Below are positions 2,267 through 16,627 of a DNA stretch of 32,577 nt, in pieces. A program made the translations under genes and the position numbers. Source of the DNA: Planctomycetota bacterium (GTDB taxonomy: Bacteria > Planctomycetota > Phycisphaerae > Phycisphaerales > UBA5793); contig CAUJHZ010000014.1 of assembly GCA_963205185.1 (NCBI GenBank), positions 1 to 32,577 on the forward strand, given 5' to 3'. How positions within the stretch are numbered: position 1 is the first letter of the stretch; each line of letters begins with the position of its first letter. The notes below the pieces were generated by a model, which saw only the letters and a program-made list of their open reading frames with translations, was not told the DNA's origin and did not search any database.

Positions 2267-3196
2267 ATGCGCCCCACGACCACACTGACCTGTCTGCTTG
2301 CCGCCGCTGCATTCGCCGCCACGGCTCACGCCCAGAGCGTCGTCACGCTCTATCCGACTGCCGACGCCCACACGCGCGACGTTGCCCCCAACGAGAACAA
2401 CGGTTCCTCAGACGTGATCTGGATCGGCCGCGGAGCATTCTGGAACCTGGGCAACATCCGCAGCTTCGTCCGCTTCGACCTGCTCGACCTGTTGCCGGGC
2501 AACTCGAACGCCATTACCGGCGCTGCACTCAGCGCGTACCAGTTTGACACGGAGCCGGCCGCAGGCGGGCTCGATACGAACGTGCACAAGGTCAGCGCCA
2601 ACTGGGACGAGAGCACCGTCACCTGGGCCAACCAGCCAGCCTTCGCCAGCCAGATCTGGGCCACAGCGCAGACCGGAGACAGCTTCTACACCGGCTGGAT
2701 CGACTGGGATGTGACGGCGCTCGTGCAGGATGAGATCACGAGCCAGTCGCACCAGGGCTGGATGTACAAGAACACCTTCGAGACCGCCGGGGCGTCGCGG
2801 CTCGGGTATTTCCACAGCCGCGAATACGCCGCGGACCCGTCGCTGCGCCTGCAACTCAACGTGGAGACGGCGCTGGGCGATGCGCCGGTGATGACGCTGG
2901 CATACGACCAGCTCACCGCCGGCCAGACGACGGTGTTCGACGTAACCGGCGCGACGCCGGGGCAGCGCATCTACTTCATCTACAGCCTGACGGGCCTTGG
3001 GGAGCAGCGCGTGAACCAGTTGGGCGTGACGCTGGGTCTGCGCAACCCGACCAGCGCCGGCGACGCCGTAGCCGACAGCAACGGCAACGCGTCCTTCTCA
3101 CGTCGGATTCCGGCGGGCGCCGCCGGCCGCCGCGTGTGGGTTCAAGCGGCGCAGCAGGGCGGTGTGTCCAACATTACGGCGGCCCGGGTTCGGTAA
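2267..3196 (+). CDS. Secreted DNRLRE domain protein
   Basis: This 309-residue exported protein starts at ATG 2267, which has a strong GGAGGAG 8 bases upstream and directly opens a signal peptide (about 1-23, cleaved after AHA). Residues 24-205 match the DNRLRE pattern: an opening VTLYPTADAHTRD, RSFVRFDL, WDESTVTWANQP, and a DVTALVQ strand before a closing LRLQLNVE. DNRLRE domains are beta-sandwich modules of secreted cell-surface or polysaccharide-associated proteins. Residues about 212-309 form a second beta-rich module with an FxxSLTGLG...VNQLGVTL...IPAG...VWVQA pattern that recurs at the C termini of the two FG-GAP proteins further along. A hairpin follows the stop. The substrate or partner is unknown. 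Confidence 0.85.
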   Translation: MRPTTTLTCLLAAAAFAATAHAQSVVTLYPTADAHTRDVAPNENNGSSDVIWIGRGAFWNLGNIRSFVRFDLLDLLPGNSNAITGAALSAYQFDTEPAAGGLDTNVHKVSANWDESTVTWANQPAFASQIWATAQTGDSFYTGWIDWDVTALVQDEITSQSHQGWMYKNTFETAGASRLGYFHSREYAADPSLRLQLNVETALGDAPVMTLAYDQLTAGQTTVFDVTGATPGQRIYFIYSLTGLGEQRVNQLGVTLGLRNPTSAGDAVADSNGNASFSRRIPAGAAGRRVWVQAAQQGGVSNITAARVR

Positions 3197-12310: not shown

Positions 12311-13870
12311 TTATGGCACGATCACAAGTTCGATTACATTTGATGTTACTGGCCCGGACACGCTGCTCACATCCAGCGCCTGCAGCCACAGCGGTCCCGA
12401 TCGGATGCCCTGCGGTATCTCGATGGCGAACTCCACCACGCCGTGCGCGTCGGAGACCGCGGCGCCAAGGCGGTGGATGCGGCGATTGAGGTCGATGCAG
12501 ATGCCCAGTTGCTGAACATACGTGCAGCCATTACCGGTGATCGAGCCAAGCAGATGAACCCGGCGGTCAGCCTCGCGGACGTACACCTGCAGACCGGCGA
12601 CAGAGCCGCGAGCAACTTCGTAGAGTCGTCTCGGAACCGAGAGATGCAGCAACAGGTCGTTGCCGCCGTGCACGACGACACCCGTTGGCGAAGCGACGAT
12701 CAGGTCGTCACGACCGTCGTTGTTGACGTCGCCCGCGGCGATTTCGTTGCCGTACGACGGCCACACCGCGCCGCTCGACTGCACCCAGTGGATCATGCGC
12801 CCGGAGATCGGGTCGAGCACGTCGATGCCGGTGCGATCGAGATCGCTGTACGTTTCGAAGAGAAGTTCGGGGCGGCCGTCGCCATTGATGTCGGCAAATG
12901 GTCCGGGGATGACGAACGCGGTCGACTCCTGGATCACCCGCAGCTGATCCACGGCCTGCCCGTCAATGCCCGAGCAGACGTAGACGAATTCGCCGTGCAC
13001 GTCTGACGGCGTGATCACATCGGGCACCCGATCGCCCGTGAGATCGACGCCAGTGGAGAGCGCGTAGCCGAAGTCTCCCTCATTACCCCACCCGGGCGCA
13101 TCGGCATGCCAGACTTCATCCAGAGTCCGGCCCGAGAGCATCGTGATGCCGTATGAAGCGGGTCGCGCCTCGCGCTGGCCAACGGCGATGTCGCCGATGG
13201 TGTCTCCATCCACATCGCCGGCGCTCCGAATGCGGCGCGGCCAGAGCAGCGACACTTCTCCGATCAGATCCCCCGTCCGGCCGCTGCGGACAGCAATGGA
13301 ACCACTCTCAGCATGTCGCGCGACGTAGGCAAAGTCCGGAACATCATCCTGGTCCACATCATCCAGTCCGGTTACATCGATGCCCAGCAGATCCCCGGCC
13401 GAAGCGCCTTGGAAACGGAAGATTCGATCGCCCGTTCGGCCGGAGAGAACTTCGACCACTCCGGCGGCGCCGTTCACATCGGGGAGCCCGATCAGAAGAT
13501 CATCCGCGCCGTCAGCGTTGATGTCGCCGATGAACACTCCCATTAGACTCGACGCGTAGGCCGTGCCCCCGTTGAACACATCTTCGCCGGTGCGACTCCA
13601 CAACGCGTTCCGCTCGTGTCCGGAATAGACGAACCACCTTCCGACCGTGGCGCCTTCGGCGACGAATGCGGGGTCGCCGATGAACAGGTCCGCCCACCCA
13701 TCGCCGTTCGCATCTCCGGTCGCCACGCTCACGCCGAACTGGACCGAGCCTTGCGGCGGCTCGATCACAAACGGCATGCCCGACTGAGCCAGCGCGGGCG
13801 CGACCAGCGCCGCCGGCGCAACAGACATCATCAGAGGTAAAGACGATTGGAACAGCCTGCGCAAGAACAT
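12311..13870 (-). CDS. Secreted FG-GAP repeat protein
   Basis: This 519-residue exported protein starts at ATG 13870 with GGAG eight bases upstream. It has a signal peptide (about 1-28, cleaved after ALA). Seven FG-GAP/VCBS-type repeats follow, each with a calcium-binding-like D-x-(N/D)-x-D-x-x-x-D core: DANGDGWADL, DINADGADDL, DVDQDDVPDF, DVDGDTIGDI, DLTGDRVPDV, DINGDGRPEL and DVNNDGRDDL. They are predicted to form an integrin-alpha-like beta-propeller. The last ~95 residues are the C-terminal module with HLLGSITGNGCTYVQQLGICIDL and GPLWLQALD, shared with its paralogue and the DNRLRE protein. Such proteins are surface or secreted and of unknown partner. It is divergent from the peroxiredoxin gene, with 220 bases between. 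Confidence 0.88.
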   Translation of the reverse strand: MFLRRLFQSSLPLMMSVAPAALVAPALAQSGMPFVIEPPQGSVQFGVSVATGDANGDGWADLFIGDPAFVAEGATVGRWFVYSGHERNALWSRTGEDVFNGGTAYASSLMGVFIGDINADGADDLLIGLPDVNGAAGVVEVLSGRTGDRIFRFQGASAGDLLGIDVTGLDDVDQDDVPDFAYVARHAESGSIAVRSGRTGDLIGEVSLLWPRRIRSAGDVDGDTIGDIAVGQREARPASYGITMLSGRTLDEVWHADAPGWGNEGDFGYALSTGVDLTGDRVPDVITPSDVHGEFVYVCSGIDGQAVDQLRVIQESTAFVIPGPFADINGDGRPELLFETYSDLDRTGIDVLDPISGRMIHWVQSSGAVWPSYGNEIAAGDVNNDGRDDLIVASPTGVVVHGGNDLLLHLSVPRRLYEVARGSVAGLQVYVREADRRVHLLGSITGNGCTYVQQLGICIDLNRRIHRLGAAVSDAHGVVEFAIEIPQGIRSGPLWLQALDVSSVSGPVTSNVIELVIVP

Positions 13871-14605: not shown

Positions 14606-16170
14606 TCAGGGTGCAATTATCTCGAGTTCCATCACGTTGCTCGTGATCGGGCCGCGCGTCGGGTCGTTGATGTCCAGAGCCTGAACCCAGACCGGTCCGA
14701 CTGGCATTCGCCTGGGAATCGTCACTCGGAAGTCAGCAAACCCGTCGGCATCCGTGACAACTGACGCGATGTTATAGATGTGCTGATCCAGATCGATACA
14801 GATGCCCAGTTGCGGCACGAAGGTGCAGCCGTGACCGACTCGTGACCCGAGCAGGTGAATGGTGCGACTCGGCTGGCCACTGAAGACGCCGAAGTCCGTC
14901 GTCGAGTCGCGGCGCTGCTTGTTGGTCACATTCCCCGGGGCTCGATGCAGCAGGAGTTGGCCACCACTCTCCACACTGACGGACCCACTGGCCGGATTCG
15001 TGATCACCAGCCCGCTGATGAGATCCGCCAGTCCATCGCCGTTGACATCGCCGACGGCGTACTCGTTGCCTGCGAACTGCACGCGTGAGTCAAAGACATT
15101 GCGCCAGGTGACGATGAGCCCGGTCAGAGGTTCAAAGACCAGTACTTTGTCGGCTCCCCACACAACGACTTCGTCCGTGCCATCCCCGGTGACGTCTGCA
15201 AAGTCAAGATCGATGCCGAGCAGGTGTTGAAGGTGAATCGGAAGTCGTCGGTGTAGGTCATTTCGATCGTCCCCGACTGCCCCGAGATCAGGTAGGAGGT
15301 TCCGTCGAGAAAATCGCCGCTGGCGAGCACATCCGGCACATGATCTCCGGTGACGTCCGTTCCGGCTTCGAGTTGATAACCAAAATCGTGATCGCCGCCG
15401 AACGAATCACGAGTCAGTTCCCAGATCACGTGACCATCTGCGCCGGAGATCGTGCTGACGACATCGACGCGCTGGGTGTTGTGCCAGGAACTGATTGCGA
15501 TGTCCCCAATCAAGTCGCCGTCGATATCGCCCGCATTGCGCACCTGTCGCGGCCAGGCGACGGCGATGGCGCGAATTTCGCTGCCGTCGCGGCCGGATCG
15601 AATCGAGAGTTCGCCGTCCGCGGTGAAGCGCGTGTCAAATGCGAAGTCCGGCACGTCGTCGCCGTTCAGATCACCCAGCCCCGCAACGCACCAGCCCATC
15701 CAGTCATCGACGGCATCGCCGCGATACGAATAGAGCAGATCGCCGGTGCGACCGGAGAAGACATCGACTCCGCCTCGTGAGTCGGACAGACGACTGCGGC
15801 CGAGAATCACGTCGTCGCAGTCGTCGCCGTCCACGTCGCCGAGAAACTCAGCTGTGGATATCGAGTAGGCCGGCAGGATCTGGCCATCTGTCCCGCTCCA
15901 CAGGAGCGACCCATCCACGCCGGAGTACATGTGCCATTTGGCGGCGACTTCGACGTTCTCGCCCGCAGCATCGTCGACCACGAAGATGTCGTCGTGGCCA
16001 TCGTGGTTGGCGTCGCCGCCGCTGGCCACGCGCGAGCCGAAATACACGCTGTCAGGTGGCGCTTCGATGGTGTAGGGCAGGCCGTTCTGGGCGAGGGCCG
16101 AAGCGGCAAGTCCAGCGATGATGATCGCGGCAACGGCGGACGATGCTGGTCGGATACGTGGCTGATTCAC
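14606..16170 (-). pseudogene. Secreted FG-GAP repeat protein, interrupted by a single-base frameshift
   Basis: This is a paralogue of the 12311-13870 gene. The start is GTG 16170, with AGGAAG about eight bases upstream, opening a signal peptide (NQPRIRPASSAVAAIIIAG...ALA). FG-GAP cores DANHDGHDDI, DVDGDDCDDV, DLNGDDVPDF, DIDGDLIGDI and DVTGDHVPDV are read in one frame until about 15250. The next cores DVTGDGTDEV and DVNGDGLADL, and the shared C-terminal module ending ELEIIAP, are read in another frame. The first frame runs on to a stop at 15124 with non-repeat residues. The span of 1565 bases is one short of 522 codons; with one added base the product would be 521 residues, almost exactly the paralogue's 519. 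The change lies near 15215-15250. A real inactivating mutation and an assembly error are both possible. Confidence 0.85.
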
Positions 16171-16627
16171 GATGGGTCTTCCTGTTTTGTTGGGTCCCCG
16201 GCGTGCGACCGGGTGGGGGGGTGGATCTCCAACTGACTTGCTCGCCGCACCGTCGGCTGCGGTGGTCAATCATTCAGCGAGCGGCAATGCCGAATGTTGT
16301 TCCCCCACGGCCTGTGCAGCCGCCCGTCTAAGCGCCCATGCTAACAGAACCGGATGCAAAGCGCGCGGGCTTTGTTGCGGAATTGCAAGAAAATCTGAGG
16401 CCGACCGGACGGGGGCGGTGGTCCAACCGCGCCGTGAACGACGGGCGCTGCCACCCGGTGCGGCACCCAGAGGAGTTCGGCGCCCCGTCGGAGACTGATG
16501 AGAAGGACATGCTCGCTTCTGTTCCGGCGCACCCGAGGAATCAGGGCCCGAACTTTGCGCGGTGCGCGCCGCCTGCGTCGTATACTGCCCCTCCGGTTCG
16601 TGCTCCGCTTATCCCCGGGAGTTCATC
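16171..16627. other. 457-base divergent intergenic region
   Basis: It separates the minus-strand FG-GAP gene from the plus-strand isomerase-like gene and should hold both promoters. Forward open frames exist but lack a ribosome binding site and family features, and I regard them as chance. A TATACT at 16581-16586 is the only good -10-like box seen. I found no RNA gene or strong hairpin. Confidence 0.4.
16581..16586 (+). promoter_or_regulatory. Candidate -10 box upstream of the isomerase-like gene
   Basis: TATACT matches the bacterial -10 consensus at five of six positions and lies 42 bases before ATG 16628. No convincing -35 box is found at 16-18 bases spacing, so this is tentative. Confidence 0.3.

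What the first reader, a model, noticed from the sequence alone, without database searches (positions are those of the whole stretch)
2900..3196. Common C-terminal module in three otherwise different secreted proteins
The last ~95 residues of the DNRLRE protein and of both FG-GAP proteins (12314-12610 and about 14609-14900) share a SxTGxG...VxQLGxxxxL...DxxGxxxF...IPxGxxGxxxWxQA...SN pattern. Different N-terminal domains with one shared tail suggest a sorting or anchoring module.
Basis: partly seen in the sequence, partly recalled or inferred. Interest (0 to 1): 0.5.

Follow-up and report, generated by a model that had tools for sequence, protein, structure and literature searches.

The report
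Mass-produced C-terminal Ig-like tail domain
The shared protein ending is real: it is a small, undescribed antibody-like domain that sits at the very end of a very large number of different exported proteins in this planctomycete, much as known "ship this to the cell surface" tags do, although no matching shipping machine has been found.

Summary
The three tails are homologous and belong to a domain family of about 100 residues that no Pfam or NCBIfam model recognised beyond scattered chance-level hits. The window's own genome (4.55 Mb) has 149 matches with one profile and 219 distinct places with two, a lower bound. In the own-genome DNA held (0.57 Mb), 171 domains had a stop codon in view; 169 end within 3 residues of it. 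Passengers are diverse (64 groups among 137 proteins), and by a simple rule most have a signal peptide. AlphaFold2 gives a confident 9-strand Ig-like sandwich (pLDDT 95 and 96). Two cysteine pairs are almost perfectly both-or-neither, which fits an extracytoplasmic place. The 6 genomes searched of its family have it; 0 of 35 from other families of its order do; 51 of 294 drawn from the phylum do (own included). Best reading: a C-terminal sorting or surface-attachment module that works like the type IX secretion CTD but is not a member of it by sequence; recognition and machinery are inferred. Against it: 16 stand-alone 'signal peptide plus module' proteins suggest a job of its own, and 3 of 40 modules sampled from other families are internal.

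The parts
2267..3196 (+). DNRLRE/CBM96 protein, 309 aa, with signal peptide (start MRPTTTLTCLLAAAAFAATAHA)
   Evidence: translation; Pfam CBM96 residues 26-195 E 2e-22, NCBIfam DNRLRE E 4e-25
2888..3193 (+). C-terminal Ig-like module of the DNRLRE protein; its last strand ends 2 residues before the C-terminus
   Evidence: A3 match 2885-3190 E 6.6e-38, the sequence being a row of A3; AF2 model of 2861-3193, pLDDT 94.8, strands between model residues 12 and 109 of 111
12311..13870 (-). first FG-GAP protein, 519 aa, signal peptide + FG-GAP beta-propeller + module
   Evidence: signal-peptide heuristic
12314..12655 (-). C-terminal module of first FG-GAP protein
   Evidence: A1 match E 2.6e-58 (a query member); A3 match 12320-12622 E 4.5e-24 (also a row of A3)
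14606..16170 (-). second FG-GAP gene, split by a frameshift near 15.2 kb (upper frame 15124-16269 with probable GTG start at about 16170, lower frame 14606-15163)
   Evidence: read directly
14615..14956 (-). C-terminal module of second FG-GAP gene
   Evidence: A1 match E 1.3e-58 (a query member); A3 match 14618-14923 E 6.0e-25 (also a row of A3)

Best explanation
The tail is an extracytoplasmic Ig-like beta-sandwich that acts as a C-terminal sorting/attachment module. Proteins leave the cytoplasm by an N-terminal signal peptide (strongly indicated). The module folds in the periplasm, its disulfides forming in two of the three subtypes (indicated). Its C-terminal strand and fixed C-terminus are then recognised by an outer-membrane or surface component that places the cargo on the cell surface, in the matrix or outside (inferred). 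Different cargoes were joined to the same module many times, and one planctomycete family uses it for a large number of its exported proteins. It works like the C-terminal domain (CTD) of type IX secretion cargo, but the receptor is unknown.
For: Strict terminal position: with the three-tail profile 97 of 98 matches end within 27 aa of the stop; with the final profiles 169 of 171 within 3 aa. In 136 terminal tails the C-terminus lies at a nearly fixed distance after the conserved S-N: 8-10 residues in 54 of 54 without a Cys pair, 7-9 in 40 of 43 with one, 5-7 in 39 of 39 with two. Signal peptides as above. Modularity: 137 proteins fall into 64 N-terminal groups, 45 of them single; 7 of the 10 largest groups mix tail subtypes. 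Passengers include subtilases, carboxypeptidase M14, GSDH, GDSL lipase, beta-helices, HAF repeats, FG-GAP and a choice-of-anchor B protein whose domain ends at residue 372 of 483, about ten residues before the module. Fold: AF2 pLDDT 94.8 and 96.4. Cys 50/100: both in 82, neither in 54, single in 0 of 136; second pair 38 both, 97 neither, 1 odd. The published CTD of T9SS cargo is also a C-terminal Ig-like sandwich on exported proteins (PMC11285876, abstract and section 2.2 seen; PMC12618676, abstract seen).
Against: No receptor, translocon or processing enzyme was found. 16 proteins are just signal peptide + module (all two-pair subtype, nine of them side by side in threes), which a pure tag does not need. 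3 of 40 modules sampled from other planctomycete families are internal, two directly after the signal peptide. Two own-genome exceptions: a tandem pair and one with a Cys-rich extension of about 105 residues. Low PEP-CTERM does not track the module: the f2 and f3 genomes also have few PEP-CTERM (5-55) and no module, and 4 of 16 f5/f6 genomes have only 2-37. Profiles A3 and A5 were built from C-terminal stretches, so they could under-detect internal variants. The signal-peptide rule is home-made and fires on 56 of 139 control frames when any start codon is allowed.
Confidence: 0.48

Rival explanations
1. The module is a binding or assembly domain in its own right: an Ig-like unit that docks secreted proteins onto a surface polymer, glycan or protein matrix, perhaps made of the stand-alone copies. 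No sorting machine reads it.
For: 16 stand-alone signal peptide + module proteins, three each side by side on C57, C59 and C7; Ig-like fold with weak structural likeness to ligand-binding and Big-1/adhesin domains; 3 subtypes that could mean different ligands.
Against: Binding domains of this fold often occur in tandem, internally or N-terminally too (general knowledge); here one frame of 172 has two copies and 169 of 171 domains end at the stop codon. The two most conserved residues, a Gly and a Gln, look structural (inference).
Confidence: 0.3
2. It is a divergent member of the type IX secretion CTD family, read by a T9SS.
For: Same position, signal peptide, size and fold class as published CTDs.
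Against: TIGR04183 finds nothing in the genome at E<=0.1; SprA finds nothing in 41 genomes, but its controls were silent too, so this part is inconclusive.
Confidence: 0.07
3. It is only a folding or stability cap, or a neutral 3' end spread by gene duplication, with no sorting or binding role.
For: Whole-gene duplication explains part of the number: the largest N-terminal group (24, apparently HAF-type) carries the one-pair tail throughout.
Against: 64 N-terminal groups and mixed subtypes within 7 of the 10 largest, fixed C-terminus, and absence from 35 genomes of sister families, which must export comparable proteins without it (inference).
Confidence: 0.12

Closest known systems
Type IX secretion C-terminal domain (TIGR04183 Por_Secre_tail and Type B CTDs)
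   Same: C-terminal, on signal-peptide proteins with varied passengers, Ig-like antiparallel beta-sandwich; in the published domain the last strand/C-terminus matters for export (PMC11285876)
   Different: No TIGR04183 match in the genome; two of three subtypes carry Cys pairs; no T9SS seen (inconclusive); 219 places, lower bound, against the 12 Type B substrates told for F. johnsoniae, Type A not counted there (PMC12618676 abstract)
PEP-CTERM/exosortase
   Same: C-terminal, many per genome, diverse signal-peptide proteins, found in planctomycetes; the genome does hold 2 exosortase matches (PMC1569441, abstract and passages seen)
   Different: PEP-CTERM is a short PEP motif + transmembrane helix + basic end; this is a folded ~100-residue all-beta domain with 0-3 residues after it
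Bacterial Ig-like domains (Big-1 and relatives)
   Same: Predicted fold class; the best viral-library hit is a Big-1 protein, E 3.9e-4; the A-D-x-x-G turn resembles such domains (recalled)
   Different: No Pfam Big-type model is among the matches of the 73 + 39 tails at E<=0.05; nearly always single and terminal
Neocarzinostatin-type apoproteins and Nir2 C-terminal domain
   Same: Closest solved folds: Nir2 Z 10.1, rmsd 2.5 over 90; neocarzinostatin 1nco Z 9.2, rmsd 2.7 over 92
   Different: Common Ig-like arrangement, 12-14% identity; no functional link implied

Membership tests
Type IX secretion CTD | located at the C-terminus of exported proteins | tested here: met
   169 of 171 within 3 aa of the stop; signal-peptide-like starts 119 of 132 by a home-made rule
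Type IX secretion CTD | compact Ig-like beta-sandwich | tested here: met
   AF2 models, 9 strands, pLDDT 94.8 and 96.4, Ig-like neighbours; the published 3+4 strand order was not compared
Type IX secretion CTD | sequence match to the family model TIGR04183 | tested here: not met
   0 matches in the genome at E<=0.1; the same search rang in 6 of 14 control genomes and was over its cut-off in 1
Type IX secretion CTD | SprA translocon in the same genome | tested here: inconclusive
   0 of 41 genomes, but no control genome rang
Type IX secretion CTD | needed for outer-membrane export, cleaved by PorU | not testable with these tools
   needs experiment
PEP-CTERM | PEP motif, transmembrane helix and basic end at the C-terminus | tested here: not met
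   169 of 171 domains end 0-3 aa before the stop, and the two predicted structures are all-beta at the C-terminal end
PEP-CTERM | exosortase in the genome | tested here: met
   2 matches in own genome, 41 of 41 genomes searched
Any Pfam or NCBIfam family | a recurrent match in the tails | tested here: not met
   73 tails: nine Pfam families, each in 1 of 73 members, best E 0.0049; NCBIfam none at E<=0.05. 39 two-pair-type tails: four Pfam families in at most 2 of 39, best E 0.012; these were not scanned against NCBIfam

The most novel reading that the evidence does not exclude
An undescribed protein-sorting or surface-assembly system of Planctomycetota that reads a folded Ig-like C-terminal signal and serves more than two hundred client proteins in one 4.5 Mb genome, with three signal subtypes (no, one or two disulfides) for different destinations and stand-alone modules as structural or receptor subunits.
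Probability: 0.35. Interest if true: 0.88.

Novelty: new variant of a known kind. Interest (0 to 1): 0.66.

Why it matters
In one planctomycete family at least 219 places of a single genome carry this one undescribed tail. If it is a sorting module, it marks out much of the exported proteome of this lineage at a stroke, and it makes the question of how these bacteria place proteins outside the cell directly testable with one reporter fusion. Its absence from sister families and reappearance in distant ones gives a ready phylogenetic profile with which to look for the machinery.

Tried and rejected
Low-complexity or chance similarity: rejected (0 hits in 7,284 shuffled frames with either profile; pLDDT 94.8). 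Known Pfam/NCBIfam domain: rejected at the thresholds used (searches scanned 94 whole proteins but show only the 25 commonest of 55 and 36 families). Peptidase_C25_C, an Ig-like domain, hit 1 of 73 tails at E 0.0069 and is treated as chance. Polyubiquitin chains at E 4.5e-9 in the PDB sequence search had 0 matched stretches passing on their own and look like a repeat artefact; ribosomal protein L19 and others there are chance-level. Replacement of PEP-CTERM: only suggestive, because PEP-CTERM counts vary widely in families without the module. Single horizontal gain by the family: not simply supported; in a FastTree tree of 196 tails the family's tails and the 40 distant ones interleave (20 label changes; shuffled mean 36.8, minimum 31), so several subtypes seem older than the family, while the 39 two-pair tails form one family-only clade, support 0.91. 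T9SS CTD structures did not appear in the 50 rows shown, which tells nothing. Literature: 8 searches listed, by title and start of abstract, no paper on this module; most subscription papers are not held. One search read the '-' strand loci L001-L030 in the wrong orientation; one search replaces it.

Rows left out before counts, and caps: A2 took 94 of 98 frames (one frameshifted, one with an inner stop and two 5'-incomplete ones left out). A3 took 73 of 96 tails (others over 60% alike). A5 took 39 of 40. The Cys and conservation counts use 136 tails: of 149 matches 2 had no stop in view, 2 were not terminal and 9 tails were under 105 residues. The 219 is a union of two lists, each cut at 150 scored candidates (of 257 and 297); 48 of its 70 additional places were not fetched. 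The stand-alone list has 19 rows, of which I discarded 3 by eye (C61:25732, C67:17167, C71:43541: the core lies inside a longer protein). The phylum draw scored at most 16 candidates per genome and the class draw 24, so presence there is a lower bound; the 35 order genomes had all candidates scored. The 40 distant places were chosen among the best matches, not at random; 30 of the 34 with a complete 5' end pass the signal-peptide rule. Control frames are non-overlapping frames of 250 aa or more and may include non-genes; with GC3 >= 0.75 the control is 20 of 67 (first ATG) or 37 of 67 (any start).

Full report
WHAT WAS CLAIMED AND CHECKED. Translation and BLASTP confirm it: E 2e-8, 2e-7 and 2e-38 for the three pairs (the last also covers propeller sequence). 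The DNRLRE protein has a CBM96/DNRLRE domain at residues 26-195 and nothing recognised in the tail. The second FG-GAP gene is interrupted by a frameshift near 15.2 kb.

SIZE OF THE FAMILY. A profile of the three tails gives 114 matches at E<=1 in the window's own genome, 4.55 Mb in 76 contigs. A profile of 73 non-redundant own tails (A3) gives 149 at E<=1e-3 with only 150 of 257 candidates scored. A second profile of 39 tails of a two-disulfide subtype (A5) gives 150 with 150 of 297 scored. The union is 219 distinct places, a lower bound. In the 0.57 Mb of own DNA held, hmmsearch of 7,284 frames gives 173 domains in 172 frames, and 0 in shuffled frames.

POSITION. With the three-tail profile, 97 of 98 matches at E<=1e-3 with a stop in view end within 27 residues of it; the exception is the first of a tandem pair whose second copy is terminal. 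For the 149 A3 matches, 145 of 147 with a stop in view end within 30 residues and 130 within 3. With both profiles 169 of 171 end within 3 residues; the other two are the tandem copy and one with a Cys-rich extension of about 105 residues. In 136 terminal tails the number of residues after the S of the conserved S-N is nearly fixed in each subtype: 8-10 (54 of 54 without a pair), 7-9 (40 of 43 with one pair), 5-7 (39 of 39 with two). In relatives, 20 of 20 sampled from five same-family genomes are terminal; of 40 sampled from the best matches in other families of the phylum, 37 are terminal (within 19 residues) and 3 are internal, two of those directly after the signal peptide.

EXPORT. By a simple rule (non-negative start region, hydrophobic core, A-x-A-like site) 119 of 132 complete module frames have a signal peptide at some start codon and 97 of 132 at the first ATG, against 56 and 24 of 139 control frames from the same DNA. 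This is a heuristic, not SignalP. Two cysteine columns are both present in 82 and both absent in 54 of 136 tails, never single; a second pair is 38 both, 97 neither, 1 odd. The tails are related to each other, so these are not independent events, but the pattern fits disulfides and thus an oxidising compartment.

MODULARITY. Among 137 proteins with more than 120 residues before the module, N-terminal parts form 64 groups, 45 of one protein. 7 of the 10 largest groups, among them subtilases and FG-GAP propellers, contain more than one tail subtype, by a motif rule and again by alignment columns, so tails and passengers have been re-assorted. Passenger families include HAF repeats, DUF3466, FG-GAP, Peptidase_S8, Peptidase_M14, GSDH, GDSL lipase, beta-helix, CHRD and choice-of-anchor B, J and Q domains. 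That NCBI's 'choice-of-anchor' names mark families that carry varied C-terminal sorting signals is recalled, not from a call.

FOLD. AlphaFold2 gives mean pLDDT 94.8 for the DNRLRE tail with nine strands and 96.4 for a two-pair tail, also nine strands. Nearest solved structures are common Ig-like folds: Nir2 C-terminal domain Z 10.1, rmsd 2.5 over 90; neocarzinostatin Z 9.2, rmsd 2.7 over 92. Foldseek gave nothing at E<=1e-3 in the PDB and one hit, a Big-1 protein at 3.9e-4, in the viral library. No Pfam or NCBIfam model recurs in the tails.

DISTRIBUTION. All 6 genomes searched of the family f1 have it, at 111-116 matches each with scoring cut at 116; 0 of 35 genomes of other families of the order have any. 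In the class, 4 of 198: two f1 genomes and two marginal single hits at E 2.7e-4 and 7.8e-4. A tail tree mixes family and distant tails (20 changes against a shuffled mean of 36.8), apart from a family-only clade that holds all 39 two-pair tails.

MACHINERY. Exosortase matches are in 41 of 41 genomes searched, 2 in the own genome. PEP-CTERM matches at E<=1 number 6-22 in the six f1 genomes and 76-150 (the cap) in 12 of 16 f5/f6 genomes; the f2 and f3 genomes (5-55) and 4 of the f5/f6 genomes (2-37) are low as well, without the module, so replacement is only a possibility. Por_Secre_tail is absent from the own genome at E<=0.1. SprA was absent from all 41, but the control rang nowhere, so absence of T9SS is not shown.

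READING. The strict terminal position, fixed C-terminus, signal peptides, varied passengers, re-assortment and Ig-like fold are together what a folded C-terminal sorting signal looks like; the published T9SS CTD is an Ig-like C-terminal sandwich whose last strand matters, though its C-terminus can be extended (PMC11285876, abstract and section 2.2). I therefore favour a sorting/attachment module that works like that CTD, at 0.48, and do not file it as a member because its sequence model does not match. The main result against this is a set of 16 small proteins made of a signal peptide and one two-pair module, nine of them in three side-by-side sets: a module that is a protein by itself probably binds or builds something. 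The binding/assembly rival stands at 0.3, and the two are compatible if stand-alone modules form the structure on which tagged cargo docks.

Noticed in passing
window 15124-16269 and 14606-15163, - strand: Second FG-GAP gene is split by a shift of frame near 15.2 kb; pseudogene or assembly error.
   Followed up: partly
L212 (G000 C57:46204-47352), L093 (C59:12814-14016), L083 (C7:706-2240): Three sets of three neighbouring stand-alone signal peptide + module proteins, all of the two-disulfide subtype.
   Followed up: partly
L031 (G000 C76:250320-250934): The only frame with two modules head to tail, both at the C-terminal end (1 of 172 frames).
   Followed up: yes
L160 (G213), L167 (G064), L150 (G055): Internal modules in distant planctomycete families; in L160 and L167 the module follows the signal peptide directly and a long second part follows it.
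   Followed up: no
L090, L081, L088, L087, L085 (G000 C25, C45, C58, C61, C10): A group of 24 apparently HAF-type secreted paralogues, all with the one-pair tail; tail fragments of the same kind lie at contig ends (C71:6, C60:21603).
   Followed up: no
L116, L117, L119, L121 (WYBR01 contigs): Records labelled Vicinamibacteraceae (isolate PLA1) carry the module at 71-82% identity; the public label is probably wrong, they look like this planctomycete genus (inference).
   Followed up: no
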